From: a virus
Strand: one strand, 5' to 3'
Virus record (IMG/VR): IMGVR_UViG_3300010391_000221
Location: 1-34,828 of that record
Length of the DNA stretch: 34,828 nucleotides
Each line of letters begins with the position of its first letter. The stretch's first letter is position 1. Made by a program: the position numbers and the translations under genes. Below the pieces are notes generated by a model. It did not search any database. It had not been told where the DNA came from and saw nothing but the letters and a program-made list of their open reading frames with translations. Below are positions 1 through 31,040 of the stretch, piece after piece.

Positions 1-3000
1 TCCCTGTCGCCGTTGGTGCGCTGGTCGCTGTGACTGTCGGGGTGATTGTCGGCGTCCGAGTCGGCGTCTGGGTCACCGTCGGCGTTTGCGTGGCAGTCGG
101 CGTGGGCGTGACCGTGCCCGTCAGCGTGGGCGTCCAGGTGTGGGTTGGGGTTGGAACCTCGGTTTCCGTCGGTGTCGGGGTGTGCGTCGCGCCAGAGAAA
201 GTTGGCGTTGGCGTATACAACGCGCAGCCACACGCACTTTGACAATAGGGTGCGCCCAGCGACGCTTCGTCAGCGCAAATCTGATCCCAGTGCGCTGTGC
301 AACATCCCGTATCCCCCAATCCGAGACAGACGCAATCACGACAACTAGGATCGGTACAGCTTGGTGACTCATGGGCAGTGCAACAATCTTCTGCGCTCGT
401 GGGTGTTGGCGTTGCGGTTGCCGTCTGCGTCGGCGTAGCAGTTCGTGTCGGCGTGCTCGTCGGTGTGTCCGTTGGGGTCTCCGTCGGCGTGCGTGTCGGG
501 GTGCTCGTTGGCGTCTCGGTTGCAGTTGGCGTGTCGGTTGGCGTGCTTGTAGCCGTTGCGGTCGGCGTATTGGTTGGCGTCGCAGTAGGCGTCGCGGTAG
601 GCGTTGCAGTGAACGTCAGGGTGGGAGTTGCCGTCGGCGTGGGAGTAGCCGTCGCCGTCGGTGTGTTCGTGGACTGAAATAGCACCAGAGGAGCAGGCAC
701 GTCTGTTGCCGTCGGCGTGCTGGTGGGCGTCGGCGTAGGCGTCCTAGTCGGAGTGTTCGTGGGCGTGTCCGTCGCAGTCGGGGTGTTCGTAGCTGTGGGC
801 GTACGGGTAGGCGTATCTGTCGGCGTACGGGTAGGTGTGTCCGTCGAGGTCGACGTGGCGGTATGAGTCGGGGTGTTCGTGTTCACCGGCGTCCGGGTCG
901 GAGTCCGCGTGGGGGTGCTCGTCGGCGTCGCCGTAGGTGTCTCGGTAGGAGTTGCCGTATTCGTTGGTGTGTCCGTCGTAGTCGGCGTCTGTGTCGGCGT
1001 GTTCGTGACGGTGTGTGTTGCTGTGGGCGTCGGAGTGCGTGTCGGGGTCTGCGTGGGAGTGTGCGTTGGGGTATCCGTGGCCGTCGGCGTTGGTGTCCGC
1101 GTCGGAGTGTTCGTCGGCGTGTCTGTGGGTGTTGCCGTAGCTGTTGGAGTCCGCGTCGGGGTGTTCGTCGGCGTCGGTGTCGGCGTGAAGGTCGCACACA
1201 CGCCGGACTCCAAACACGCTGCGTTGAGCACCAGCGTCCCATCGGGGCACGAGCCGACGCCGCATCCCCCGTAAGGTGCTGCGCAATCACAGCACGCGTT
1301 TGCAGGCAGCGGCGTCCACGTCGATGTAGGCGTCGGCGTCGCCGTCGGTGTATTCGTCGGCGTGTGGGTTGCGGTGGACCGGAACAGCACTGGTGGCCCC
1401 GGAACGTCCGTTGCTGTAGGCGTCGGCGTGCTGGTCGGTGTAGGGGTGTTAGTGGGTGTCGATGTATTCGTCGGTGTCGCCGTTGGGGGCGCACACAGCA
1501 CCGTGTCGTTCATCACCGTCGTCACGTCAGCGGCGGAGAGGGCATGATCGTAGATGCGGAAGTCGTCGACGACGCCCACAAACTGCTCAGTACAATTATC
1601 ACCAGCAACAGCATAGCCGGTTGTCCCAGATGAGGCAGTAGAAAAAAATCCCTGCGTACTGGAGGAACCGACATTATAGTTAAGAGTCTGAAGTGAACCA
1701 TCAATGTAGAGTCGATTACCAGCAGAATCAGACTCATACACATAATGATGCCAACCTGTTTGTGAAGAAGGTACGACTATGGTCGCGTTGAGGATTGTCG
1801 TGGACGAACTGACAACCACGATGTTGAAGTCGTAGCTTGATACGGGAACAGTAAAATAGCCAATAAAGTAAGTGGCAAAACCGCACGAAGCGATGCCATC
1901 TTCTGCCACAAACACGACATAATTGGTGCCAGTTTGTAGTCCCGAATCCGCTTTTGCCCAGAAGGCGATAGAGCCTGCGGCGAGTACATCAAAACTGTCG
2001 TCCGACACAATGCTCAGCCACCTGTCCGTCGCATCCAGTGGTCTGCACGTGAGACCAGCACCTTGGTGTCCGGTGTCCCAGCTACAGGAGTGCAAAGTGC
2101 CCGTGTGCCCGTAGGCTGAGGCATCCGCTGTGCTCGTCCCGGTGTTCTCGGAGAAGCAGTAGCCGAGCTGGAGCACCGGCGGTGGTTGCAATGCGAGCAG
2201 CTCCGCCGTCCCGACTCCGCTCACACCTACCGTCGCCGTCTTCACGCCCGTCGCCCCAGCAGCAGACTGATTCACCTCGTCACCGGCAACAGAGATTCCC
2301 GTCACGTTCGTATCCCACCGTTCCGTCATGCCACTCGGCGCCGTCCACCCTCCAGCCGATGCCGCCGAGTACATCGCCACCAGCATCTCGTTCGGGCCGG
2401 TGGTCGTGATGTTCGGAGAGTCGTGAGTCGTGCCAACAGATGTGCTCTGCCCGTTCTCGACGTCAATCGGATTGTCCAGGTACGTGCCGCTGTACGTTGC
2501 GATGGCGCCCGTCGAGGCGACCGAGGTGCCGAAGGTCCAGCTATGCGTTGTCGCTGCGCAGTTCGCCTTGTAGTAGTACGCCGTGCGGAGCAGCACACCA
2601 TTGCTGACCTGCCGAATCAGCGTCCAGCCCGAGGGCGCGGTGATCGTCGTGCAACTCACGACGCAGACGATACTGATCTGCGCAAGGCAGAGGTCACCGC
2701 TCGTCACATCGCCGGCCCCCACGACAATGCCCAGGCTCGATGCCGCTGCGTTGCCCGCGGTGACCGATGAATGGAACACGATCACCGGTACTGGGGTATT
2801 CGTGGGCGTCGAGGTTTGCGTCGGCGTGGCCGTGAACGTCGGCGTTGGCGTATTGGTGGATCGAAACAGCACGCCCGGGACAGGCACGTCCGTCGCTGTG
2901 AAGGTCGGCGTAGCGGTGGGTGTCTGGGTTGGCGTCAGCGTTGGCGTAGTCGTCGGTGTAGACTGAAAGAGCGCCGGGGGCAGTGGAACATCAGTCGCCG

Positions 3001-4996
3001 TGAAGGTGGCAGTGGGAGTATTCGTGTTCGTTGGCGTCTGGGTCGGGGTGGGCGTCTTGGTGAACTGATCCACCAACTCAATCGCCGCCGCGCACGCCTT
3101 CGTCGAATCTGTCGAGCCTTGCGTGGTCGAACTCGCATTGAAATAGTCGCCGAGACCGAGGTCGACAACCGTCCCGTTACTGCACGTCGTGCCGCTCACC
3201 GTACACGCCATGGAGGAATCAGACAACGTGCTCGTGGTACTCGTGCGCAAAGTCCACGTCGCGGTGTTGCTCGCGGAGCAACTCACCACCAGATTGCGTG
3301 CGGTGGCTGCCGATGAAGATCGCAGCATGTAGGTATCGCTAGAGACTGCATAGTAAGGCGTGTTGTAGTCGGTATTTCCATGGAACTGATGCTCAAGCGG
3401 CACCCAAGCACCGGAGCCCGTCGTCTCGAACCAGATCTCTCTGATCTTCGCCTCGGCCGCACCTGCACGATTGAAACGAACCGTCAAGGCGTCACCCTTC
3501 GTCACCGCACAGCCCGTGGTGCAATTTGCGCGGCACGTAGTGCCTGTCGAGTCGATGGTACACGCCGCATTACTATCCGTGGTTGTCGTGGAGTTCCGCA
3601 GCGTGAACGTTTCTGTCTTGCCGCTGGACGGCGCTGAACTGAGACGTACGGCAATCCCGGCGAGCGTGGCATCATGTGGCGCAACAATCATTGCCAAGGC
3701 TTCTGTCGATTGCGTGCACTTCGCCGCTACTTCAGTGAACGTGCCGGAGCCGCAGAATTGCCCGTCCGTCGGTGATGGAGCGCTGGAATCGTCACCCAGA
3801 ATCACGATGTTATTGTGCGGCAGCGTACTGCTCCCGTTCGCGGTCACCGTGAACGTGGCGAAGCAATCCGTCGCATTGGTTGGACTGTTCGAGGGCACCA
3901 TTTGGAGAGTGAACAGTGCCATCTGGGCGGTATCGACAGTATGCGTCACATCGGAGCAGACCGTGGATGTCCCGACGAGCGCGCAAGTTAAAGCACTGGC
4001 TGAGCCATCGACGTTCAGCGATATGTCGTACTGCATACTGCCAGTACCCGGTGCAGCTGTGCACTGGGCGTGCATGCTGGAGAGCCGCCCGCTCGTGAAC
4101 GCCGCCACCTGGGCATTTCCCACCGTAGTCGATGGGCCTTGCTGTACACCGTAGCGGGTGCCCGCCGTTGCTGATCGCATACGTAGGTATAGTTCCGCGT
4201 GCTCGATGTAGGTCGGCGTGTTGGTTGGGGTTGGCGTGGGCGTTAGGGTCGGCGTCGGCGTATTGGTCGGGGTATTCGTGGGCGTCGGGGTTCCCATCGA
4301 GAATGTCTGCGAGAACTCAAACCAGCCTGGATGCGTCGTATCGGTATCGGTGTTGCTCTGGTCGGTGGCGCTCGTTCCACCATATCCCAACGTCATGGTA
4401 CGCGAGGTCGCGTTGCTGTTATCGTTGAAGCCCACCTCGATCACGATGTAGTCACCCGCCACCGGCGACGTGCCGCCAGAGTCGCATTTGCCGGAACCAG
4501 TCTCCAGATTTATCGCTGTACCACCAGACGCTCCGGCACCGGCGAGCGTCGTAGTCCATTCGTCCGAACCCGAGCCATTGTTGGTGTCCGTAATGAGTGT
4601 GCAGCGCACCAGCGTCGTGCTCGTGCCCTGCGTTACGTAGGCATGAATCCTGTAAAATGCGTTCGCTGCGTTGTTCGACTCCTGGGCCATCGCCACCCAG
4701 TTGAGTGTGCCGGTGATGTTGGCGGTATTGGTCAGAGCGATCGTGGAGACGAAGGTCACGATGCGGCCGGTGGTCGCACCATTGGCAGTCTCGGAGACAG
4801 CAGTCGTCGCGGCAGCCCCTGACTTCGCCGTATCCAGGCCTATGTTTGTTGCAGCGCCAGTCTCAGAGGCCCAGGTTCCCTTGGTCGTGATGCTCGCGAT
4901 GCCCCCAGTTGAGTTCTGGAGGTAAAAACGAGTCACGCCTGAAGCTGAAGCAGGCAACAGCGCTACCACATACGCGCATAGAAACCAGCGACGCAT
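1..4996 (-). CDS. Giant secreted multidomain Thr-Pro-repeat protein with LamG-like domain (3' end outside window)
   Basis: The minus frame from ATG 4996 stays open to base 2, giving 1,665 codons with no stop; the gene runs off the left edge. An in-frame TTG at 5008, preceded by GGAGG, is an alternative start. The N-terminus [19 protein letters not shown] is a Sec-type signal peptide. Then: a beta-rich domain (about 25-230), a TPTxTPT linker (235-264), a second Ser/Thr/Cys domain (265-645), a linker (645-735), a third domain (735-938), a LamG/ConA-like domain (about 942-1165, containing [20 protein letters not shown] and a [11 protein letters not shown] end), Cys-rich domain 1 (1229-1269), long TP linkers, Cys-rich domain 2 (1535-1595, with [14 protein letters not shown]) and more TP repeats. 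DVPxPxxLF[QR]ST occurs four times. It is probably an exported adhesin or surface/appendage protein. Domain names are by eye; the reading frame is secure. Confidence 0.85.
400..1195 (-). repeat. Thr-Pro-encoding degenerate tandem repeat
   Basis: On the minus strand this is an imperfect array of ACN-CCN-ACN-xxN codons giving TPTxTPTxTPT. One non-repeat motif (667-708) interrupts it. Copies differ at most third positions, so the repeat is kept at protein level more than at DNA level. Similar arrays lie at about 1-200, 2790-3062, 4203-4300, 5730-6035, 6715-6825, 14620-15345 and, in the opposite orientation, 30420-30715. Confidence 0.85.
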
Positions 4997-5041
4997 CCAC
5001 CGCCACAAGCCTCACCTCCCCATGATTCACCGCCTTTGATG

Positions 5042-5656
5042 TTACGTGCAGGAGCAGTGCATCGCCTTGACGTGAGTCAGCACATAGGGCGACGAAGCTT
5101 CCGTCCCGCCGCTTTTATGCACAAGACGAAACTCGCAGGGCACTCCGGCCGCTAGGTTAGTATAGGCGTTGGGCGCCGCACCGGTTCCATTGCTTGCCTT
5201 GATGAGCGCCGTATTGATTGTTGCCGCCACGTTGGTCAACGTGAGGGTCTGCTCAGTCCCGAAGGTCTTGCTCGTGCAGTCGGCCGTCCCACCCACACAA
5301 CACCCGACCGCCAACGACCAGAACTGTGTGGTTGTCCCATTCACGTTATTCAGGGCCTCGACCTCGCACGTGCACGTTCCTGCACTGGTGCTCGCGGTTG
5401 GCGGCCAGAGAAATGCTGCGACGAGCGCTTGGCACGAAGCCGCCGTGGCATTCGCGACACAGGTCCGCGTGACAAACGGAGCTCCGTCTGTTGGCGCTGC
5501 AAACGTTGCCGTGTCCTTCACGCAGGCAGCGTAAGTGCCTGACGCGGTATAGCTGCGAAAGGTCCCGCCATCCGGGAAGTCGAGAACATCGGCACCCGCA
5601 GGCACTGCCATGCACAGCACCGCTGCGCACATCAGTCTGAAGATCCACTTGGTCAT
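5042..5656 (-). CDS. Secreted Cys-rich hypothetical protein, 204 aa
   Basis: I do not recognise the family. The ATG at 5656 follows AAAGGAGGA at 7-nt spacing, a strong ribosome site. The N-terminus (MTKWIFRLMCAAVLCMAVPAGA, cleavage near residue 22) is a clear signal peptide. The mature part has about a dozen cysteines, including CTCEVE and CCVGG and a final CSC, which suggests a disulfide-stabilised extracellular or periplasmic protein. It is Thr/Ala-rich but lacks the TP linker of its neighbours. It lies between the 150-aa TP-repeat protein and the giant TP-repeat gene on the same strand with short gaps, so it is probably co-expressed with them. Confidence 0.75.
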   Translation of the reverse strand: MTKWIFRLMCAAVLCMAVPAGADVLDFPDGGTFRSYTASGTYAACVKDTATFAAPTDGAPFVTRTCVANATAASCQALVAAFLWPPTASTSAGTCTCEVEALNNVNGTTTQFWSLAVGCCVGGTADCTSKTFGTEQTLTLTNVAATINTALIKASNGTGAAPNAYTNLAAGVPCEFRLVHKSGGTEASSPYVLTHVKAMHCSCT

Positions 5657-5677: not shown

Positions 5678-6130
5678 TTAGGGACATGCGCAGACACCAC
5701 CAGCGGGGCTTTTGCATGAGTAAGGACTGCACGTGGTGCAGGGCGTCTGCGCGGGCGTACTCGTGACCGTAGGCGTCTGCGTAATCGTTGGTGTGACCGT
5801 CGGCGTGTTGGTGATCGTCGGCGTGTTGGTCGGCGTGGGCGTATCCGTTGCTGTGGCCGTGCGCGTTGGGGTCACGGTCGGGGTCTGCGTAGGAGTATCG
5901 GTCACCGTCGGCGTCGCCGTAGGAGTATCGGTTACCGTGAATGTCGGCGTCGGGGTGAATGTTCGCGTCGGGGTGTTGGTGGGCGTATCCGTCGGGGTAT
6001 TCGTCGGCGTGTTGGTCACCGTCGGCGTGGGCGTGGAAGTCGCTTGCTGGAGCAGCGGCGCAAGTTTCGCTTCGCTGACCTGCACGCCCCACCACAACAG
6101 CAGCCCCACCACAAGGCAGAATCGTCGCAT
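5678..6130 (-). CDS. Secreted Thr-Pro-repeat protein with Cys-rich tail, 150 aa
   Basis: A signal peptide ([21 protein letters not shown]) is followed by about 100 residues of almost pure TPTxTPT repeat (residues 31-130). The tail is short and Cys-rich ([20 protein letters not shown]). There is no folded domain apart from the tail, so this is a stalk-like or mucin-like secreted peptide; the Thr-rich region could be O-glycosylated, which is inference. It starts 3 nt after the stop of the 506-aa secreted protein. The plus-strand reading of the same DNA gives VGVxVGV open frames that are artefacts of the repeat. Confidence 0.75.
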
Positions 6131-6133
6131 AGG

Positions 6134-7654
6134 TCACAACAGCATATCCATGCCGATGGGCGTCGCGGTAGGTGTCGGTGTCGATGTTGGAGTCGCCGTC
6201 GGAGTGCTGGTTGGCGTAAACGTCACACACCACGGCGGCTCGACGTTCTCGACGCTGAAGTCGTTGACGCGTAGTGTCACTGAGTGATTCACGGCACTTC
6301 CCGTGGTCCCCAACAACTGCACGGCAAGACGGTCCACGTCGGTGCCCACTGAAGAGATTCCAGAGAAGACCACAGTTTGAATGCCCGTGCCGGTAAGAGC
6401 GCTAGAAGTTGCCAAGATGGTACTGTTCGCTGCACAACTCCCCGGTAAGCGCATGAGCCGCAGCTTGTAGTTCGTCACATCGCTGCCGATGTCTGTCACG
6501 TCTACCCGTAATGTGTACGTCCCACTGAAGTCGGCGTGCAGGACCTGCGCAGAAACCCATCCGCCGTAGAAAGGACAGAGTTGATCGGTCACGCTGACCC
6601 CAAAATTGCACACCTGGGATTGCCCGCCGACAGGTGTCGTAGATAGAACAGCCTGCGAGCAGTTGGCGATCGTCAGGTCTTCGTTGTAGCACTTCCCAAC
6701 CATCGGCGTTCCTGTCGCACCCGGCGTTGGTGTATTCGTCGGAGTGACCGTTGGGGTCCGGGTCGGCGTATTGGTCGGCGTGGGCGTGCGCGTCGCCGTG
6801 TTCGTGGGCGTCGGTGTTGGTGGCGTCCCGAGGTACGTCACGAAGACGAACGCCCATCCGCGATCCGTTTGGGTACTGCCAGTCCAATTCCCCGCATCGC
6901 CATCGACACCGGTCGCACTGGCAACTCGATACATTGCGTTGATCTGTCGGTCCTGTCCCGTTCCCCCGGATGTACCGATCACGGGCGAGGTCGTCCACAC
7001 GGGAGCGAAAGTCACGCACGTACCGCTCGGACAATCACCCGCGACGGTACAACTCTGCTGGTCATTTGTGCCCCCCTGACAGGATCGCGTCGCATTGGTC
7101 CATGACCAGGTGGCGACCCGCGCATTTGCTCCGACCAGAGCGAAGAGCAATTCATCGCCCTGCACCCGTGTCGCACTCGGCCCAACCCATGCCGTCAACG
7201 TCTGGCCACGGCGCACAGCACTCGTATCAACACCGGTCACACTGGCCAGTTCCCACGCACCCATGACTCTCTTCACCGTCGATGGGAATGTGCAGGTGAT
7301 CGTTTGAGCATTGGTGAGTGCGGTAGTCACCGGGGCCGAGAGGATCGTGGTGCGAATCCCATTGCCCGCGCCGGGCACCTGCGGGAAAGCATAATCCTGA
7401 TCCATCGCATACGCATTGCTCCCGGAGTCCACACAAGAAATCGTGCAACTCGATGTGCAATCGACGGTGCCAAGTCCCACCACAACACGATTGCCCAAGG
7501 CGACCCCGCTCGCAGGCACCACAACGCTCAGCGTCGTGCCTGCTGATGTCGATTTATTCGTGCCGATCAATTTGACGAACGTGGCGGTCGCGTGGGCGAC
7601 ATCCACCCACGCGATGAGAAGCACAAGTGATCCTAGAACGTATACGCGACCCAC
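6134..7654 (-). CDS. Secreted two-domain protein with Thr-Pro linkers, 506 aa
   Basis: The start is GTG at 7654, overlapping the end of the fibre-like gene by 22 nt. A signal peptide ends at VDVAHA (about residue 22). The first domain (about 25-275) is beta-rich and includes [17 protein letters not shown], comparable in style to the third domain of the giant protein. It carries one Cys repeat, [20 protein letters not shown], of the kind found in the upstream 847-aa protein. A TP linker (about 278-315) leads to a second beta-sandwich-like domain (about 320-480), possibly carbohydrate-binding or pre-peptidase-like. A short TP tail ends in GMDMLL. It probably acts outside the cytoplasm; the function is unknown. 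Confidence 0.75.
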
Positions 7655-10176
7655 AACGTTACCGTCATCCCAGTTGGCGTGCTGGTAGGACTGGACAGCA
7701 CGATTTTCAGCCGATCTCTATCCGCCAACGAAATTGCGGAGGGTGTCGTACTGCCCTCGGTTTGCGTCACCGTGATCGGCCCAAAGCCCGTCAGGTTTGC
7801 ATAGGCCCCCCCGAAAGGTCGGCGCTGTACTGTGAAGGCGACAGAGGTCCCACTTTCGATCTGATAGTCCGCGCCAACGATCTGCGCCGTCTGGCCCGAT
7901 GGGACAGGGATGGAGAACGATAACGGCACGCGCGAGGTCACATCACCTTCGAGTGTGTACGCATGAGGTATCCGCACCGTTCGGACCCGGTTGTCGACGT
8001 ACTGCTTAGTCGAGACGCCCAAAGCTACAGTCGGGTCACCCGCCAAGGTGCACAGGCCTGGCGCGGTGTCCGTGCACGTCAACACCGAACGATTCGGTGT
8101 GGACAACCGCAGTTGGCTTCGCAAGGCCTGGACTCCGCCGATACCAAAGTTGGGGGCATCGAACAGTTGCACACCCGCTAGCCCATCGTAGCCTAGAAGT
8201 TGTCCCCCGGTCTGACCGGTTATGTCCGTTGCGGTGATCACCGATAGAAAGTCGCGGACTGCCCCGTTCGTGTAACGGCGAAAACGAGGGGGCGTCGTCG
8301 TGGTAGACGACCAGAGTTCGCCTTCCTGCGGGACAACTGGCTGTGCGCAGGCAAGCGGACCAAGATAGGCACCTGCCCCAGCGTTCCAGTTATTCGCTGA
8401 CACGTAACTCAACGTGCCATTGATGATTCGTTTGCAGGCATCGTAACTGTACAGTCCCTCGATAACCAACTTCGTGTTCGTGCCGATATCCAATGGCACA
8501 TCCACGCTGTGCCCACCCGGTGTTGGGTTGAGGGTTGTGCGCACATCGGCGACGTGGACGCCGAGTGAATTCGGATAGGGACTGGATGCCTCACAACTTG
8601 ACTGGCTCAGCCGTACGCCCTTCGTTGTCGTCTCAATACTACTGGTCTGCAACCGGAGATCGTCAATCGTCAGGTTGAAATCAATGCCGCACGCTACCGC
8701 CTCATACCACAACGCTCCATCGCCCGAGCCTACGGGAGATGTCTGGAAGAATGACCCACCACCGACCGTGAAATCGCTCGAGCCAGGCAACGTGCAGGTA
8801 CCGCCGCCGCCAGGCGTGCAATTCCCATCATTGAGGCAATTCCGTGTTGGGATTCCACTGCAGTGCGTCGTGCTGGCCTGAAAGTGGAGCAGGCGATCAT
8901 TCGTGACATTCCACGCCCACATGTTTTCAACGGAACTGTGTTGATTGCCGTCGCCCGTAAAGTTGAAATTCCAGCCCCCTGCGGTCAGCGTCGCCCCATC
9001 CTTGATGATGCCAGAGTTGTCATAGCCGGTCGAGCAAATTGCGTCTCCCGAGCCACCATTCACTATCTGCAAATTCGCCATCGTCACGTTTATGGTATTC
9101 GTGCGATTGAACGTGCACGGAGAGGAACTGCGAATGGCAGTTGATGTGCGTGTGCCCGAGCCGATGTACTGGACACTATCAATCGGCGCGGTCGTCCCAC
9201 GGAATGTGCATGTGCCACCGCCCGCGCAGTCGGTGGGAAATTCGCAGTAAGCGCCGTCGTTCGTCCCGTTCTCACACGTCGACGACACGGTTTCGTCGAA
9301 TCGTCCGATGCCGAGTGTAATGGCGTAGGTCTTTATTGGACCTGTGCAGGCCGCACCAGCACAGCGACTATTATTGTTCGTCGTGAGGCATGTGGTCGCG
9401 CCACCGCTCGGGCAGACTGCGTTGGTGAGGCAGGGCGTCGAGGGGCTGTCCCCACAGGACTTAGCCGTGCAACTACCACCGTCGTTGCAATCGGTATTCA
9501 GGTTGCAGATCGTACCGTTGTTACTTCCACCTGCACACCGACCGCACCCTTGGGTGTTATTGGTCGCGCAAGTCGCAAAACGGTTATCGTGCGCCGCCAA
9601 AATCTGTGCCTGGGCACCGTTCGCACTGGTTAGCGTCAAGCACGGACGGTTCAGGGGACCACAGCCAGAGAAGTCGGCGCCGTTCTTGTCAACGTGCACG
9701 GCAAACGCTGTCGTGATGGCGGGTGATACATCGGCGCACACCATCACTCCGCCCGAGGTGGTCAAGGGCTGATTGCTGCTGAGACAATCCGATGGCAGGC
9801 TGCCACCTGTACCGCCGTTAGCAAGACCGAGCGTGCCCGTGACATCGGTACTCATGTTGATCGCCGCGCAAGCCTCAGCATTCCCGCTCGCATCGGTGCC
9901 GAGCGGCCGCTGATTGCTGGCGCAGTTCGTCCCGTTGGCGGAGAGCGCCCGCGCCCGCCATGCCGTCGACGACTGCCCACCGATCATTTGTGCGTGCGCC
10001 GGTGGAGCGAACAGGCAAAGCAGCAACACGGCCAGCTCGCAGAACACGCGGATGAGGCTGACACAGGCGACCAACACGCAGGCCAGCAATCCCAGCTGCT
10101 CATGATGTGTCGCGAGGGCAGCAACGGCGATGGCGATGTTACCAACGAGAAATGAACCGATAAGGCGACGACGCAT
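7633..10176 (-). CDS. Exported fibre-like protein with Cys-rich repeats, 847 aa
   Basis: The ATG at 10176 follows AGGGTGAAGG, which overlaps the previous stop. The N-terminus has hydrophobic stretches and an APPAHA cleavage-like site at about 62/63. Right after it come phage fibre signatures: TLGLANGGTGG (about 115-125), of the 'LANGGTG' type common in tail fibres, and near the C-terminus GDPTVALGVSTKQYVDNR, the 'xxxSTKQYVD' motif of tail fibres and collars. The centre holds three Cys repeats of the form CxGGxxNGxxC...DCxxGGxC (about 210-240, 300-323, 425-450) and a right-handed-helix-like stretch rich in N, S and T. The likely role is receptor binding or surface display. A signal peptide on a virion fibre is unexpected, because virions assemble in the cytoplasm. 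Confidence 0.8.
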   Translation of the reverse strand: MRRRLIGSFLVGNIAIAVAALATHHEQLGLLACVLVACVSLIRVFCELAVLLLCLFAPPAHAQMIGGQSSTAWRARALSANGTNCASNQRPLGTDASGNAEACAAINMSTDVTGTLGLANGGTGGSLPSDCLSSNQPLTTSGGVMVCADVSPAITTAFAVHVDKNGADFSGCGPLNRPCLTLTSANGAQAQILAAHDNRFATCATNNTQGCGRCAGGSNNGTICNLNTDCNDGGSCTAKSCGDSPSTPCLTNAVCPSGGATTCLTTNNNSRCAGAACTGPIKTYAITLGIGRFDETVSSTCENGTNDGAYCEFPTDCAGGGTCTFRGTTAPIDSVQYIGSGTRTSTAIRSSSPCTFNRTNTINVTMANLQIVNGGSGDAICSTGYDNSGIIKDGATLTAGGWNFNFTGDGNQHSSVENMWAWNVTNDRLLHFQASTTHCSGIPTRNCLNDGNCTPGGGGTCTLPGSSDFTVGGGSFFQTSPVGSGDGALWYEAVACGIDFNLTIDDLRLQTSSIETTTKGVRLSQSSCEASSPYPNSLGVHVADVRTTLNPTPGGHSVDVPLDIGTNTKLVIEGLYSYDACKRIINGTLSYVSANNWNAGAGAYLGPLACAQPVVPQEGELWSSTTTTPPRFRRYTNGAVRDFLSVITATDITGQTGGQLLGYDGLAGVQLFDAPNFGIGGVQALRSQLRLSTPNRSVLTCTDTAPGLCTLAGDPTVALGVSTKQYVDNRVRTVRIPHAYTLEGDVTSRVPLSFSIPVPSGQTAQIVGADYQIESGTSVAFTVQRRPFGGAYANLTGFGPITVTQTEGSTTPSAISLADRDRLKIVLSSPTSTPTGMTVTLWVAYTF

Positions 10177-14300: not shown

Positions 14301-15446
14301 TCACTGCGTACAGCCTTGTCCTGGCACCGGCGTTCCACACCCAGGTGGGCACGCTCCGTTGACGGGTTGCGCGCACTGACTGCCGAGTTGATCGCAGTTG
14401 CAGCACCCCAGCGCGACCGGGCACCCGTGAAAGTGGTTGTTGACGATGGTCAGGATGTCCGTGTCGCTCATCGCGCCTTGCGACTGGCAGTCACAGGCAG
14501 AACAAACCGACAGGGTAAGCGCCCCACCACGAATGACGGCGCACGTATTCACTTCCGCAGTCGTCACGGTGCCATCGCCATTGCAATCGCCGCAGCAGGC
14601 CCGTGGGCCGGTCGGCGTGGGGATCGGCGTCTGACTCGGCGTTGGCGTGACCGTTGCTGTCGACACGGGCAGGGTCCGGGTAACGGTAGCGGAGGGCCGG
14701 AGTTGCATCACCTGTGCCGGCACGAATCGCGCGTGCATCGGGGCAGGCGTGACCGTGGCGGTTGGAATTGTCCCCGTTGGACTCGGCGGTGTTGCGGTCG
14801 GTGTTCGGGTCAGGGTTGGGGTCCACGTCAACGTCGGGGTCCGCGTCGGGGTCCGCGTCACACACCGGATCACCGACCCATTGCAGCCGGTCACCTCGCC
14901 GATCGGGACCGACCCGCTCCCATCGGCATCACAGGCCGGGCACAGCGAGACGGGTTGCCCCAAAAAAATCTGGACACAGAGGCCACATTCAGTCGAGGTG
15001 ACGGTGCCGTCGCCGTCGCAATCCCCATCGCAGACTCGTGGCGTCGGCGTCGAGTTCTGAAACACTTGCGGGAAGACAAGGCGAGGTCGAATCGTCGGAC
15101 TCAGCGTAGGCGTAGCGGTAAGCGGGATAGTTCCGGTGGGCGTCGCGGCAGTCGGCGTCCCAGTGAATGTCTGAGTCGGGGTGAGAGTCGGGAGGTTCGT
15201 TCTCGTGTTGGTTGGGGTCTGCGTGCGCGTCGGGGTGTTGGTACTTGGCAGCGTACCCGTAACCGTCGGTGTACGGGTCGGTGTGAACGTCGGGGTTGAC
15301 GTCCACGTGACGGTGCGCGTCGGCGTCGGGCTGGGAATGAAAATTACCTGTGCCGGGCGCCGACGACGCGGCGTCGGGCTCTGCGCCTGCACAGAGGCAG
15401 AGATCAGGATGAGCAGCGCAATGCTACACGACCGAAGAAGCCACAC
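14301..15446 (-). CDS. Secreted dockerin/EF-hand-like protein with Thr-Pro linkers, 381 aa
   Basis: The start is GTG 15446 with AAGGGAG 6 nt upstream, overlapping the previous stop. A signal peptide (to SVQA, residue 21) is followed by TP linkers and two Cys-rich calcium-loop modules. Module 1 (about 138-195) holds DGDCDGDGTVTSTE and DADGSGSVPIGE, both with the D-x-D-G-D/S-G-x-V pattern of dockerin type I or EF-hand loops. Module 2 (about 282-345) holds GDCNGDGTVTTAE and a degenerate second loop that has lost the acidic residues. The C-terminus is Cys/Gly-rich. This kind of module is common in secreted proteins of Binatia-like bacteria (from memory). It may bind calcium and a cohesin-like or surface partner outside the cell. 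Confidence 0.8.
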   Translation of the reverse strand: MWLLRSCSIALLILISASVQAQSPTPRRRRPAQVIFIPSPTPTRTVTWTSTPTFTPTRTPTVTGTLPSTNTPTRTQTPTNTRTNLPTLTPTQTFTGTPTAATPTGTIPLTATPTLSPTIRPRLVFPQVFQNSTPTPRVCDGDCDGDGTVTSTECGLCVQIFLGQPVSLCPACDADGSGSVPIGEVTGCNGSVIRCVTRTPTRTPTLTWTPTLTRTPTATPPSPTGTIPTATVTPAPMHARFVPAQVMQLRPSATVTRTLPVSTATVTPTPSQTPIPTPTGPRACCGDCNGDGTVTTAEVNTCAVIRGGALTLSVCSACDCQSQGAMSDTDILTIVNNHFHGCPVALGCCNCDQLGSQCAQPVNGACPPGCGTPVPGQGCTQ

Positions 15447-15456
15447 CGTGACTCCC

Positions 15457-16104
15457 TTAGAACAGGAAGCATGCGCTAATCAGCTCGGCCGCAGCTGGAT
15501 CTGGCGAAGTGCAGAAGATGCTCGTCCCACGTCCCACGAAAAAGACCGCGTGTTTATTCTGGCAGTTCGTGGCATCACACGACGCCCCCACTCCCAATCC
15601 AGAACCAAGAATCGGTATGGGCGCCCCGCTGAGAAATCCGCCGCTGTAGTTGACCTCCCCATACAATGTCTCCCAGGCCCCGGTCGGGTTCGGATGCACA
15701 AGAGGCCCGGCAGCCAACCGCTCGGCACCGGAGATGCTATCGACGGGCGGATTAGCAGTGCCTGCATCGTCCACAGTGATCCCGAAGATGGTACAGATCG
15801 AGTTGCCGCTCGTTGTGCTACTCGTGGCCCATTGCACGACCACCTTCGTGAAGAACCCAGGGAAGTCCGCAGGGAGCACCGCTTCGAAGGTCACCCCAGC
15901 GCGGGCCGAGTTCGGGCACGACCACGTGGTATGGGCATAGCCAGTGCCACTGTGGGGCACCTCCGTACAGGGGGTCAGTGACGCCGTGGGCGGCGCATTG
16001 TCCATCGCGCGCCCCACGGCACAGATTTCGCCTGCCTGTCCTTTCAGCGGTAGGCTCCACAACACAACGGCGCATCCCAGCGCACCCAACTTCCTCCAAT
16101 CCAT
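15457..16104 (-). CDS. Secreted hypothetical protein, 215 aa
   Basis: Start set at ATG 16104 because AAAGGAGGAGGAGA lies just upstream and the protein then begins with a signal peptide (MDWRKLGALGCAVVLWSLPLKGQAG). The mature part looks beta-rich, with Cys pairs near both ends (CPNSARAGVTFEAVLPADF, CDATNCQNKHAVFFVG, ending SACFLF). It lacks TP repeats. Its stop overlaps the ribosome site of the dockerin-like gene, so the two are probably made together. No family recognised; a periplasmic or surface beta-sandwich is my best guess. Confidence 0.7.
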   Translation of the reverse strand: MDWRKLGALGCAVVLWSLPLKGQAGEICAVGRAMDNAPPTASLTPCTEVPHSGTGYAHTTWSCPNSARAGVTFEAVLPADFPGFFTKVVVQWATSSTTSGNSICTIFGITVDDAGTANPPVDSISGAERLAAGPLVHPNPTGAWETLYGEVNYSGGFLSGAPIPILGSGLGVGASCDATNCQNKHAVFFVGRGTSIFCTSPDPAAAELISACFLF

Positions 16105-20243: not shown

Positions 20244-20906
20244 TTAGGAACCTCCACCGAAGTTGCCTCCGAGAGCCATCAGTTGCGCCCGGGCGCGCCG
20301 TTGCTGGAGCAGTTGCGCGAGCCCGCTCATGCCCCCTTGCATCGGGAATTGCGGCAACACCAAAGCCTGCCGGTTTAGGGGCGGGAGCGCTGGCGGTGCC
20401 TGCTGACCCTTATCGCCCTTGTCGCGATCTCCACCCATGCTCGAACTGAGAAGTTGTCGCAAGTCTTTGCCCTGCGGGCTGTCATAAGCCTTCACGATCG
20501 GCGAATCCCGAATGTTCGCGTAATTCCCATGGTAGAGGTCCATGATGTGCGAAAACGCACTGGGCGCTGCAGGAGCCGTCAAGCCAGCGGAAACACCCGC
20601 AGTACCGGCTGCAGGCAATTGCGCGGCTGTGAGGCCGCCACCGCTCGCCAGACCTACCCCGGTGCCACCACTCGCCAACGTCCCGGCGCCGCCGACCGCG
20701 GCAAGTGAACCGCCACTGGCGGCACCAGCGCCGACTCCACCGCTGGCCAGCGTGCCGAGCCCAGCAGCGCCACCAGCGGCACCAGCGGCACCAGCGCCAC
20801 CAGCGGCACCAGCGCCGGCTGCTCCGCCGCCAATCCCAAGTGCACCACCGACAGCGCCAGCCGCTGACCACACAGTCGCCAACACCGCAGCGATCGTAAT
20901 GGCCAT
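20244..20906 (-). CDS. Gly/Ala-rich low-complexity virion protein, 220 aa
   Basis: Start set at ATG 20906 with GGAGGT upstream; TGATG overlaps the GNAT stop. The first 130 residues are a long Gly/Ala repeat (AGAGAAGGAGAAGAAGG, TLASGGVGAGAASGG) with glycine-zipper spacing, then a polar helical region (FSHIMDLYHGNYANIRD, GKDLRQLLSSS). Such Gly-zipper proteins can insert in membranes, and podovirus ejection proteins often have these stretches. Likely part of the DNA-ejection set, by inference. The repeat DNA has 9-bp tandem units. Confidence 0.65.
   Translation of the reverse strand: MAITIAAVLATVWSAAGAVGGALGIGGGAAGAGAAGGAGAAGAAGGAAGLGTLASGGVGAGAASGGSLAAVGGAGTLASGGTGVGLASGGGLTAAQLPAAGTAGVSAGLTAPAAPSAFSHIMDLYHGNYANIRDSPIVKAYDSPQGKDLRQLLSSSMGGDRDKGDKGQQAPPALPPLNRQALVLPQFPMQGGMSGLAQLLQQRRARAQLMALGGNFGGGS
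20770..20815. repeat. 9-bp tandem repeat inside the Gly/Ala-rich gene
   Basis: About five imperfect copies of gcaccagcg in a row encode the Ala-Gly-rich run on the minus strand. Slippage here would stay in frame and change the repeat length. Confidence 0.75.
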
Positions 20907-21370
20907 CAGAGCAGTACCTCCATCTGCACCGTCGTGGGCCACGCGCCTTGGGCGACGAACTCCTCGATCCCCCGTTGGTTCACGAGATGCACCGGTCCCA
21001 TGATGCGCTCGATGCCGGCTTCAAGGCACATCTCACGGCCACGGTCGCGCAACATCCGTGCCACACCCTGGTGACGCACTTCGGCAGCCACATAGGAACC
21101 CAGCGCGTGACACGTCCGCCACCGTAGATCGAATGCTGCGGGTATCCAGCCCCACTGGATGTAGCCAACAATCATGTCATAGGCGTGCGTCGCCACCAGC
21201 GTGGGCATACCGAGTATCGCCCACGAGACGCCGAGTTCGAACAGCATCTGGGCGTTTTTTTGGGTCGACAACAAGTCGCCCCCGCGGCGCACACTCGCAC
21301 TGAGAAAGTCGCGGATCATCGGGCTCAGGACTGGTGCATCCTCGATGCGCCACGGGCGTACGTCCATCAT
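20906..21370 (-). CDS. GNAT-family N-acetyltransferase, 154 aa
   Basis: The start at ATG 21370 overlaps the upstream stop as ATGA; the ATG at 21367 is the alternative. The N-terminus MDVRPWRIEDAPVLSPMI is the usual GNAT opening. The acetyl-CoA-binding motif A is readable at about residues 93-110 (VAAEVRHQGVARMLRDRG, the Q-x-x-G-x-A-type pyrophosphate loop), preceded by a beta-strand (IVGYIQWGW) and followed by motif-B-like HLVNQRGIEEFVAQGAW. The fold transfers an acetyl group from acetyl-CoA to an amine; the substrate is unknown. It lies between two internal-protein genes, so it may modify a virion or host protein during late infection. Confidence 0.75.
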   Translation of the reverse strand: MMDVRPWRIEDAPVLSPMIRDFLSASVRRGGDLLSTQKNAQMLFELGVSWAILGMPTLVATHAYDMIVGYIQWGWIPAAFDLRWRTCHALGSYVAAEVRHQGVARMLRDRGREMCLEAGIERIMGPVHLVNQRGIEEFVAQGAWPTTVQMEVLL

Positions 21371-22116
21371 TTGCCGCCGGCTCCAAACAGCCCGCTGGGG
21401 CTCAACCCCTGGCCGATGCCCGCAACAATGTCTGACCCGTACTGCGTGCTGTGCTGCTGCTGGGTGCGCGACAGCAATTGGCTCAACATCTGCAACGGGA
21501 ACGTCTGCAAACCCGACTCGATCCCAAGACGCTGTTGGGCCGCGTCGAAGGCGGCTTGCGCTTGCTCGAGCGCGACCTCGCGCGGCAATCCTGCGGCTTC
21601 GAACGCAGCGGCCAAACCCATCAATTGTTCCTGCCCAAGTTGGCCGTACTGACCCACAGCCTGTTGGCGGTTCTGGATCTCTTGCTGAATCAGCGGCACG
21701 GCCGCGGCGGTTGCACCTTGGCCCATCGCTTCGAGCGCGGCGCCACCACTGGCCGTCCCTTGCAACGCTTGCGTCTGCATGATGCTCGGCGCGACCAGTT
21801 GCTGGAAGGCTTGCATACCTGCTTGGGTTGCCGGCGATGAACCCACTGGACCGCTGGTGAGTTGCTGCAACTGCTGTCGCGCGGCCGCACGGTCCGGTGA
21901 GGCTGCCCCCGTCGCCATCATCTGCTGAATCAGTCGCTCCTGATCGGGCGTGAGTCCCGGTACGCCAAGAGTCGGCACTTCTCCGGGGAGCTCCGCCAGA
22001 CTTGGAAATTGCTGCTGTGCGGCGAACCATTGCGGGATCCACCCGGACGGCCCCGTGGTGCCCGGCGCGAGGTAGCCCGGAATGTCGGTCCATTCTTTAT
22101 TCCAGGTTGTCGCCAT
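21367..22116 (-). CDS. Gln/Ala-rich virion protein candidate, 249 aa
   Basis: Very rich in Gln, Ala and Leu with long predicted helices (PDQERLIQQMMATG, AAARQQLQQLTSGP, IQQEIQNRQQAVGQYGQL, LEQAQAAFDAAQQRLG). It starts MATTWNKEWTDIPGYLAPG. No signal or membrane segment. Such Gln/Ala-rich helical proteins occur among podovirus ejection and internal core proteins. It starts 1 nt after the fibre-like gene stops and overlaps the GNAT start by 4 nt. Confidence 0.65.
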   Translation of the reverse strand: MATTWNKEWTDIPGYLAPGTTGPSGWIPQWFAAQQQFPSLAELPGEVPTLGVPGLTPDQERLIQQMMATGAASPDRAAARQQLQQLTSGPVGSSPATQAGMQAFQQLVAPSIMQTQALQGTASGGAALEAMGQGATAAAVPLIQQEIQNRQQAVGQYGQLGQEQLMGLAAAFEAAGLPREVALEQAQAAFDAAQQRLGIESGLQTFPLQMLSQLLSRTQQQHSTQYGSDIVAGIGQGLSPSGLFGAGGK

Positions 22117-22117
22117 C

Positions 22118-23161
22118 TCAGATCCTCACCACCGTCGTCGTCATGTACGTGCCCGGCAATCCGGCAGGCCCGATGAACGCCGGGAGCACCACGGTCTCTG
22201 GGGCGTCATTGGTTGCCGCCTGTACTTTCAGGTTCACGGTTGTGTTCCCCGGATAGGATACCACCGAAAAGCCCGCACCGGAAAGAATGCCAACGCCCGG
22301 CACTTGGTCGTTCACGTTGCGCACATCCACGCGCTGTCCGCTCACCGCCCAGAACGCGGCCCCGTCTGTCACCCACGCGCTCGTGATGCTGCCGATGTTA
22401 GGATTGCCGTTCAGCACGTAGAGACAATACTCGACGAACAGGAGATGGTTCGAGCTGTCGTCCGGGAGGGCTACCGCTGCGGTGAGAATGTCCGTGTTGC
22501 CCGCGATCGGAACAGGGCCACCCGTCATCTGCGTCCGCACGGGCACACCCACCAAACTATCGACGTACTGTTTCGATGCCGCCTGCAAGGGCTGTGTGGG
22601 GTCCGCGGCCAGCGTGAGCGGTTCGGTCAGCGTCCCGCCGATGAACTGCATCAGGCGGAAGTTTGTGCCGTCGAACGCGAAGAGATACACCCCGTTTTGC
22701 AGGAGATCGTTCGCCTGCGCTGCGGCGCCATCGCGGCGGACAATGGGCGCTCCCGGCAGCCCACTCAGAGTCAGAATCGACGGACCGATGTTTGGCGGTC
22801 CCGCGTTCTCGACGATGTAGAGCGCGTTTTGTTGGTAGGCAGCCACCGCGGGCGCTGGCGTTCCCGAGTACAACACGGCGTCGGTCGAGTCCACCGTCGT
22901 GTAGATGGCTTTGCGATCGGCGTACTGCGCGGTCGCGCCACCGAGCGGGTCCGTTGGATCTCCGACGAACTTCACGAACCCGAGCAACGGATCGCCCACG
23001 AAACCAAAGGGCGCCCCGAACTGACCGCGCACGTTCGGGGCCAACCCGAAGGCGAGCAGGATGTTGGTCGGGATCGCTTGGATCCTGGACGGGCCAGTCT
23101 TCAAAGACTCATCGCCGTCCGGCACGGTCGGGTCAAAGGTAACGGTGACCGGATTCGCCAT
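22118..23161 (-). CDS. Tail fibre/appendage protein, 347 aa
   Basis: The diagnostic segment is PLTLAADPTQPLQAASKQYV followed by DSLVG (about residues 182-206), the 'L.AdPt.plqaatKqYVD' motif frequent in tail fibres and tail spikes. Upstream are two repeats of GDPxDPLGGATAQYADRKAIYT type. The C-terminal third is beta-rich (FVEYCLYVLNGNPNIG, SVVSYPGNTTVNLKVQAATN) and could form a receptor-binding tip. No signal peptide, unlike the 847-aa protein with the same KQYVD motif, so this is the more likely true virion fibre. Confidence 0.75.
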   Translation of the reverse strand: MANPVTVTFDPTVPDGDESLKTGPSRIQAIPTNILLAFGLAPNVRGQFGAPFGFVGDPLLGFVKFVGDPTDPLGGATAQYADRKAIYTTVDSTDAVLYSGTPAPAVAAYQQNALYIVENAGPPNIGPSILTLSGLPGAPIVRRDGAAAQANDLLQNGVYLFAFDGTNFRLMQFIGGTLTEPLTLAADPTQPLQAASKQYVDSLVGVPVRTQMTGGPVPIAGNTDILTAAVALPDDSSNHLLFVEYCLYVLNGNPNIGSITSAWVTDGAAFWAVSGQRVDVRNVNDQVPGVGILSGAGFSVVSYPGNTTVNLKVQAATNDAPETVVLPAFIGPAGLPGTYMTTTVVRI

Positions 23162-30341: not shown

Positions 30342-31040
30342 ATGACGCGATCAGCACGGTGGCTCAGTGGTCTCCTGATTCTTGTGGCGACATCTCGTGC
30401 CCATGCACAGGCAACGGCGACCCCCACACGCACCAACACGCGCACGCCCACCATCACCGCCACCCCAACCAAAACGATGCCAGCCACGTGGACCCCGGTG
30501 CCCACATGGACCCCGACGCGTACGCAGACGGGCACGCCCACGCCGACACTGACGGGCACGCCGACACTGACGGGCACGCCAACACTCACCTCCACACCGA
30601 CCCGCACTGGCACGCCAACCAATACCAGCACCGCCACGCCGACACGCACGCCCACCGCCACCCCGACGATCACACGCACACCAACGATCACCCCGACGGA
30701 CACACCGAACACGTCGGGGAACATCGCGCTCTCCATGGGCGGCGCCCCGACACCGGCGACCACGGCGTGCGCAACCGAAGTGACTGGCTACAAGACCGGC
30801 CACAAGTCGGTACACGTGGAAGTGACGGCGGGCGGCGGCGGCACACCGACACCGGCGATCAAAGTCATGTGCCGCGGGATCGCGGGGAACACCTCGCTCC
30901 TGCAGGAAGGCACGACGCTGAGCGCCTCCGGTGTCCGCGAATACGACACCTGGTGCGACGCGCACACGATCTGCGTCAACGACTGCGGCGGGTGTTCGAT
31001 TTCTGCGTGGGTGCGGGCGGATCCGATTCCGATGCCATAG
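30342..31040 (+). CDS. Secreted Thr-Pro-repeat protein on the opposite strand (moron-like), 232 aa
   Basis: Start chosen at ATG 30342 with GGAGGG 7 nt upstream, because the protein then opens with a signal peptide ([20 protein letters not shown], then HAQ). About 100 residues of TPTxTPT repeat follow (28-126), then a C-terminal domain of about 105 residues with paired Cys ([39 protein letters not shown]). The build is the same as that of the secreted proteins at the left end, but it lies on the other strand between portal and scaffold-region genes, with gaps on both sides. This is the usual pattern of a moron: an independently expressed cargo gene. Probably acts on or outside the host surface. 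Confidence 0.8.
30420..30715 (+). repeat. Thr-Pro-encoding degenerate repeat, plus orientation
   Basis: Plus-strand array of ACN-CCN-type codons encoding TPTxTPT. It is inverted relative to the arrays at 1-1500, 5.7-6.0, 6.7-6.8 and 14.6-15.3 kb, so it forms an inverted repeat pair with them at low to moderate identity. Confidence 0.75.

What the first reader, a model, noticed from the sequence alone, without database searches (positions are those of the whole stretch)
7633..10176. Fibre-type protein with a signal peptide and Cys-rich repeats
LANGGTGG and STKQYVD are tail-fibre signatures, yet the protein has an N-terminal export signal and many likely disulfides. A true virion fibre should stay in the cytoplasm. 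Either this is a fibre-derived protein displayed by the host, perhaps to block or bind related phages, or fibres mature in the periplasm.
Basis: partly seen in the sequence, partly recalled or inferred. Interest (0 to 1): 0.75.

Follow-up and report, generated by a model that had tools for sequence, protein, structure and literature searches.

The report
Exported, disulfide-rich phage tail fibres
This virus of an uncultured bacterium encodes a tail-fibre-like protein that is built to be exported out of the cytoplasm and cross-linked by disulfides, and it belongs to a widespread, apparently undescribed class of such exported fibres, which suggests that some tailed phages make their cell-binding parts outside the compartment where they assemble.

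Summary
P0001 has a hydrophobic N-terminus ending in an AHA|Q site, fibre motifs, a C-terminal domain homologous to a short fibre from another phage's structural operon, and 34 cysteines after the signal. It is not an isolated oddity. A paired-Cys module in P0001 (residues 77-104) occurs in 143 IMG/VR contigs. Of 77 such proteins with an intact 5' end, 70 score as signal-peptide positive and nearly all the rest do by eye, against 0 of 28 ordinary KQYVD fibres and 0 of 80 AGNPVV-type fibres. The two module cysteines are present or absent together. These genes tend to lie after tail genes and before endolysin, carry no lipobox, and in one clade keep the N-terminus while swapping C-terminal tips, as receptor-binding fibres do. 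In several of these phages the exported proteins are the only fibre-like ones. My best reading is that these are adsorption fibres or lectins matured in the periplasm that meet virions at lysis. Virion attachment is inferred, not shown. Free secreted glycan-binding proteins, or host display, remain possible. The probable host is Candidatus Binatia.

The parts
7633..10176 (-). Target gene, exported fibre-type protein P0001 (847 aa)
9988..10176 (-). Residues 1-63: export signal with two or three hydrophobic segments, predicted cleavage AHA|Q
9865..9948 (-). Residues 77-104: paired-Cys module ALSANGTNCASNQRPLGTDASGNAEACA, shared with the exported fibres of other phages
9802..9825 (-). Residues 118-125: LANGGTGG fibre motif
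9205..9546 (-). Residues 211-324: Cys-rich repeats CxGGxNxGxxCxxxxDCxxGGxC, of a type found in secreted Candidatus Binatia proteins
7636..8109 (-). Residues 690-847: STKQYVD stalk motif plus C-terminal beta-sandwich (jelly-roll) domain, homologous to the 189-aa fibre of L002/L003
10188..10718 (-). Upstream neighbour, 176 aa, N-terminal membrane segment, 6 Cys
6134..7654 (-). Exported neighbour, 506 aa, signal peptide, one Cys repeat, Thr-Pro linkers
5678..6130 (-). Exported neighbour, 150 aa, Thr-Pro repeats
5042..5656 (-). Exported neighbour, 204 aa, 13 Cys
2..5008 (-). Exported giant (at least 1669 aa, 46 Cys), Thr-Pro linkers; 220 aa related to the exported gene next to the fibre in L147 (E 2e-8); runs off the contig
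14301..15446 (-). Exported protein, 381 aa, 24 Cys, two dockerin/EF-hand-like repeats, Thr-Pro linkers; relatives in Binatia MAGs
15457..16104 (-). Exported protein, about 215 aa
12708..13148 (-). Exported protein, 146 aa, MYFSLWAIMSLLTVLVFATTARA signal (by eye)
22118..23161 (-). Conventional fibre-type protein of the virion module without a true N-terminal signal (SKQYVD motif, 1 Cys)

Best explanation
P0001 is a member of a widespread class of phage fibre-type proteins that are exported through Sec and oxidised outside the cytoplasm. It is a chimera. A signal sequence is followed by a paired-Cys fibre module, then Cys-rich repeats of a type used by secreted proteins of the probable host lineage (Candidatus Binatia), then a stalk motif and a beta-sandwich tip homologous to a protein encoded in another phage's structural operon. 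Proposed mechanism: late in infection the fibre and its co-exported lectin-like partners fold and form disulfides in the periplasm. Virions assemble in the cytoplasm, and the two meet when endolysin opens the cell, so that adsorption fibres attach at lysis. Export and disulfide bonding are supported by sequence. Fibre identity is supported by motifs, homology, gene position and tip swapping. Attachment to the virion is inferred only.
For: Module fibres: 70/77 SP-positive by rule, nearly all the rest by eye, versus 0/28 KQYVD fibres (Fisher 3e-19) and 0/80 AGNPVV fibres. Module Cys both present or both absent: 29 CC, 6 neither, 0 single and 62 CC, 5 neither, 1 apparent single that is an alignment shift. 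Position: next to endolysin and after tail or virion genes in unrelated phages, with tail families upstream and endolysins downstream across loci. Fibre identity: PHROG tail-fibre families and one S74 chaperone among members; P0001 C-terminus homologous to L002/L003 fibres. Tip swapping with conserved signal plus N-terminus. No lipobox. In G263, G266, G250, G255 and G253 the only proteins of fibre-like composition are exported ones. Exported neighbours include LamG (7 of 44), sialidase, esterase and beta-helix domains.
Against: No virion proteomics or microscopy. The window also has a conventional fibre-type protein (22118-23161), so P0001 need not be the phage's main adhesin. P0001 shares only the module (residues 71-112, 60% identity to L135) and general architecture with the rest of the class. 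Its signal is unusually long. How an exported protein would find the virion is unknown. Models of P0001 are weak. Signal calls rest on a home-made rule and by-eye inspection.
Confidence: 0.5

Rival explanations
1. Free exported glycan-binding or glycan-degrading proteins: fibre-derived lectins or depolymerases are released into the periplasm or medium, where they act in trans on host or neighbour polysaccharides (loosening the envelope, helping progeny escape or clearing a path), without joining the virion.
For: Exported neighbours carry LamG, sialidase, SASA esterase, polysaccharide-lyase-like and beta-helix domains. No anchor is seen. The window has a separate conventional fibre-type protein.
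Against: C-terminal tip swapping with a strongly conserved N-terminus suggests the N-terminus docks to something. Several phages show no other fibre-like protein.
Confidence: 0.25
2. Host-surface display: the phage makes the infected cell or lysogen expose a fibre-derived protein that masks receptors or captures rival phages (superinfection exclusion or decoy).
For: Export signal, Cys-rich repeats like those of Binatia secreted proteins, adhesin-like composition; the P0001 C-terminus ends in F with alternating hydrophobics, which resembles an outer-membrane beta-signal.
Against: No lipobox in 77 fibres or 73 exported neighbours. The gene lies in the late structural-lysis region, where lysogenic conversion genes are less expected. 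The terminal F is not shared by the class.
Confidence: 0.14
3. The hydrophobic N-terminus is not an export signal: either it is untranslated upstream open frame (as in P0005, where the real start is the MAPRNGAG methionine), or it is a membrane-active part of a cytoplasmically assembled virion protein used during entry.
For: P0005 shows that such artefacts occur. The P0001 signal is long and multi-segment, and M64 follows it directly.
Against: No Shine-Dalgarno match at M64 or M108, an 11-nt gap at ATG 10176, coding-like codon usage, a 34-Cys mature part, and consistent signal peptides across the class together with all-or-none Cys pairs.
Confidence: 0.07
4. The gene is a host-derived secreted protein captured by the phage (a moron) that happens to carry fibre-like motifs.
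For: Cys repeats and dockerin-like neighbours match Binatia secreted proteins.
Against: The paired-Cys module is essentially absent from the phylum and from the Binatia genomes tested (1 weak hit in 244) and present in 143 viral contigs. The C-terminal domain is phage-type.
Confidence: 0.04

Closest known systems
Conventional phage tail fibres with ANGGTG and (S/A)TKQYVD motifs
   Same: Fibre motifs, beta-sandwich C-terminal tip, gene position near tail and lysis genes, swapped tips
   Different: Conventional fibres have no signal peptide (0/28 and 0/80 here) and almost no cysteine; P0001 and its class are exported and Cys-rich
S74 (endosialidase chaperone) tail fibres such as Pelagibacter phage HTVC112P gp48
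   Same: The exported fibre L134 shares a repeat domain with gp48; one class member has an S74 domain
   Different: gp48 has no signal peptide
Phage surface-exclusion lipoproteins (T5 Llp, Cor of phi80/N15; from general knowledge)
   Same: Phage-encoded and exported
   Different: Those are small lipoproteins; no lipobox was found here
Cys-rich secreted proteins of Candidatus Binatia (CxGGxNDGxxCxxxxDCPGGxC repeats)
   Same: Repeat sequence and export signal
   Different: The host proteins read here lack the fibre module and the stalk and tip; they are chromosomal exoproteins
Caudoviricetes sp. vir555 gene 00057 (BK063671.1, host written as Methanomicrobiales)
   Same: Signal peptide plus fibre motifs shortly after a tail gene, followed by an exported beta-helix protein
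   Different: Annotated only as hypothetical; assigned to an archaeal host, which has no Gram-negative periplasm

Membership tests
Phage tail fibre or receptor-binding protein | Fibre sequence motifs (ANGGTG, STKQYVD) | tested here: met
   Residues 118-125 and 722-728
Phage tail fibre or receptor-binding protein | Homology of a domain to a protein encoded in a phage structural operon | tested here: met
   C-terminus vs L002/L003 fibres, phmmer E 4e-9 over stalk and tip
Phage tail fibre or receptor-binding protein | Cytoplasmic synthesis (no export signal), as in known tailed-phage fibres | tested here: not met
   Export signal at residues 1-63
Phage tail fibre or receptor-binding protein | Presence in the virion | not testable with these tools
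   Needs proteomics or microscopy
Phage tail fibre or receptor-binding protein | N-terminal domain that docks to the tail | tested here: inconclusive
   No known docking domain was recognised in P0001; docking itself could not be tested
Exported paired-Cys fibres (class described here) | Signal peptide at the N-terminus | tested here: met
Exported paired-Cys fibres (class described here) | Module ANGxNC...GxDAxGxxExC with both Cys | tested here: met
   C85 and C103; 60% identity over 42 residues to L135
Exported paired-Cys fibres (class described here) | Neighbouring genes also exported | tested here: met
   Window cluster 16104-2; class: gene +1 SP-positive in 39 of 63 loci
Phage superinfection-exclusion lipoprotein | Lipobox at the end of the signal | tested here: not met
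   P0001 ends its signal AHA|Q; 0 of 77 relatives have a lipobox
Autotransporter or YadA-type adhesin | C-terminal outer-membrane beta-barrel anchor | tested here: inconclusive
   C-terminus predicted as beta-sandwich at pLDDT about 66; no Pfam match

The most novel reading that the evidence does not exclude
Some lineages of tailed phages make their receptor-binding fibres as Sec-exported, disulfide-bonded periplasmic proteins and complete the virion only at or after lysis, a two-compartment assembly pathway not described for tailed phages in the literature I could search.
Probability: 0.42. Interest if true: 0.9.

Novelty: new variant of a known kind. Interest (0 to 1): 0.74.

Why it matters
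Tailed-phage assembly is taught as wholly cytoplasmic. If adsorption fibres are exported and oxidised, then virion completion, host-range determination and dependence on host Sec/Dsb work differently in these phages, and expression of such fibres in the cytoplasm would fail. It also gives a simple genomic marker (a signal peptide plus a paired-Cys module) for receptor-binding or glycan-binding proteins in uncultured phages, where these genes are mostly unannotated. If the proteins turn out to be free instead, they are a large unrecognised set of phage-secreted lectins and glycan enzymes.

Tried and rejected
Pfam, PHROGs and NCBIfam on P0001: no hit. tblastn of P0001, the portal and the phrog_3287-type protein in isolate phages: no hit; the module and L050 likewise. 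MCP and terminase relatives in IMG/VR: none. P0001 without its C-terminus in IMG/VR: none by exact peptide patterns. The STKQYVD relatives L002-L029 proved to be ordinary fibres and became the negative control. A signal peptide in the Binatia-associated phage contig G021 (P0005) was rejected: its real start is downstream, as the 80 AGNPVV fibres show. A conserved small gene upstream of the fibre was looked for and not found as one family. AF2 of residues 151-620 failed (pLDDT 31), so the trimeric beta-helix idea is untested. The structure comparison of the C-terminal model listed many unrelated jelly-rolls within 1 Z of the top, so only the fold type is claimed. Eight literature searches found nothing on Sec-exported tail fibres; absence from this library is weak evidence.

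Full report
What is there. The window is an IMG/VR virus record of 34,828 bases. The named ORF is real but on the minus strand, 10176 to 7633, 847 aa. On the same strand, upstream, lie terminase, P22-type portal, major capsid and tail-module proteins. The gene follows them, after an intervening region that holds small membrane proteins, and is packed with its neighbours (gaps of 11, -22, 3, 21 and 33 nt).

Is the export signal real? Residues 1-63 are MRRR... followed by hydrophobic stretches and ...LCLFAPPAHA|Q. ATG 10176 has a Shine-Dalgarno-like AGGGTGAAGG, its codons look like coding sequence of this genome, and the in-frame ATGs after the hydrophobic region (residues 64, 108) have none. 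The segment is long and may contain two extra membrane spans before the cleaved one; this would not change the sidedness, because the mature part would still be outside (inference from charge pattern). About nine genes in the window have such N-termini, and they hold 160 of the 176 cysteines counted (3.72% against 0.32%, p about 1e-36). Cysteine enrichment restricted to signal-bearing genes is independent evidence that the signals work.

Is it a fibre? LANGGTGG and STKQYVD are present. The last about 150 residues are homologous to a 189-aa protein in a structural operon of another phage (L002: scaffold-like, capsid-like and connector-like genes, then this gene). They are predicted as a beta-sandwich, with jelly-roll proteins as structural neighbours. 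The 28 other KQYVD fibres fetched have no signal and almost no cysteine, so P0001 is an outlier among them.

A class. P0001 residues 77-104 contain a module, ANGTNC...GTDASGNAEAC. A degenerate DNA scan for part of it in IMG/VR hit 17 contigs; the ORFs with an intact N-terminus were fibre-like and began with a signal peptide. A relaxed scan that did not ask for cysteine gave the same result, with unrelated GVDAxGNAE proteins SP-negative apart from one short chance match, L077. A profile scan found 143 contigs. In the best 80, 70 of 77 intact N-termini are positive by a simple rule, and the rest are positive by eye except that L186 is only plausible and L157 has an in-frame stop at the cleavage site. 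The two cysteines are both present or both absent, which is expected of a disulfide and makes an oxidising compartment likely. The AGNPVV fibre family served as a second control: 0 of 80 have a signal, and median Cys is 0. That control also exposed one false positive of my own (P0005).

Where the genes lie. In G263, a phage with a tape measure, the exported fibre and an exported 1125-aa protein lie between a large tail-region protein and endolysin. In G257 it lies between a 1700-aa protein downstream of the head-module genes and endolysin, with one 497-aa gene in between. In G262 it lies among virion and lysis genes and itself hits a PHROG tail fibre. Over all loci, upstream neighbours hit tail, tail-fibre and tail-fibre-assembly families and downstream ones endolysins. 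The next gene downstream is also signal-bearing in 39 of 63 loci, against about 16% of distant genes. Exported neighbours carry LamG (7 of 44), sialidase, esterase, beta-helix and polysaccharide-lyase-like domains. The window's giant exported gene is related to one of these neighbours (L147, E 2e-8).

Behaviour of the class. In one clade (L131, L132, L136, L044, L139, L121) the signal-bearing N-terminal half is 72-97% identical, while the C-terminal end is either 96-100% or roughly 13-27% identical between pairs, with three tip types. This is how receptor-binding fibres evolve. Signal codons in this clade show more synonymous than non-synonymous change in most pairs (e.g. L136 vs L044: 5 synonymous, 0 non-synonymous). 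No member or exported neighbour has a lipobox. In five of the fourteen records read in full, the only large proteins of fibre-like composition are exported ones.

Host. The Cys-rich repeat of P0001 is found in 50 of 98 genomes of the class of G003 (a MAG named Candidatus Binatia), often many times, in long ORFs, but in only 4 of 118 genomes sampled across its phylum, all four of that class. The dockerin-like neighbour matches Binatia/Deltaproteobacteria MAGs. The paired-Cys module is essentially absent from those genomes. So the fibre combines a phage module with repeats of the host lineage's exoproteins. The host is inferred, not shown.

Mechanism. Export, oxidation and fibre ancestry are supported by sequence. 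Two steps are inferred: that the protein stays soluble in the periplasm until lysis, and that it then joins virions. Against exclusive use as the virion fibre, the window also encodes a conventional fibre-type protein at 22118-23161. Free exported lectins or depolymerases are the strongest rival, and surface display for exclusion is weaker. Statistics on related sequences are inflated by relatedness; the contrasts are nevertheless near-complete.

Novelty. PHROGs label some members tail fibre, and one published virus, vir555, has a clear example annotated hypothetical. The held papers contain no description of signal-bearing tail fibres. I rate it as a new variant of a known kind, because the proteins are recognisably fibres; only the export route and its consequence for assembly would be new.

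Noticed in passing
window 30342-31040 (+): A gene on the opposite strand inside the head module (between portal and the 28803-29717 gene) encodes a further exported Thr-Pro-repeat protein ([23 protein letters not shown]).
   Followed up: partly
window 2-5008 (-): A giant exported protein of at least 1669 aa with 46 Cys and long Thr-Pro linkers runs off the contig; about 220 aa are related to the exported neighbour of the fibre in L147.
   Followed up: partly
window 14301-15446 (-): Exported protein with two dockerin/EF-hand-like repeats (CDGDCDGDGTVT, CCGDCNGDGTVT) separated by Thr-Pro linkers, matching Binatia proteins.
   Followed up: partly
window 20906-21400 (-), approximate: An acetyltransferase-like protein (MDVRPWRIEDAPVLSPMIRDFL...) sits among virion genes.
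   Followed up: no
L157 near 4812-5053: In-frame stop exactly at the predicted signal cleavage site (GALALQA*QVT) of an otherwise intact exported fibre; sequencing error or inactivation.
   Followed up: no
L131, L132, L136, L044, L139, L121: Three alternative C-terminal tips on a conserved signal plus N-terminal half in one phage clade.
   Followed up: yes
L198 3652-8271 (BK063671.1, vir555): A tailed virus with host written as Methanomicrobiales carries an exported fibre-like gene and an exported beta-helix gene after its tail genes; if the archaeal host is right, export there is to outside, not to a periplasm.
   Followed up: partly
L180 (residues about 290-315): A second paired-Cys module (NANPTDCSATQYATAIAASGNLTCAQP) in an exported fibre; probably another disulfide module of the same class.
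   Followed up: no
L207/L208 (G021:C45): A 39.9-kb phage-like contig in a Binatia MAG with an MCP related to the window's (21% identity, E 3e-8); its fibre P0005 is the conventional AGNPVV/S74 type.
   Followed up: yes
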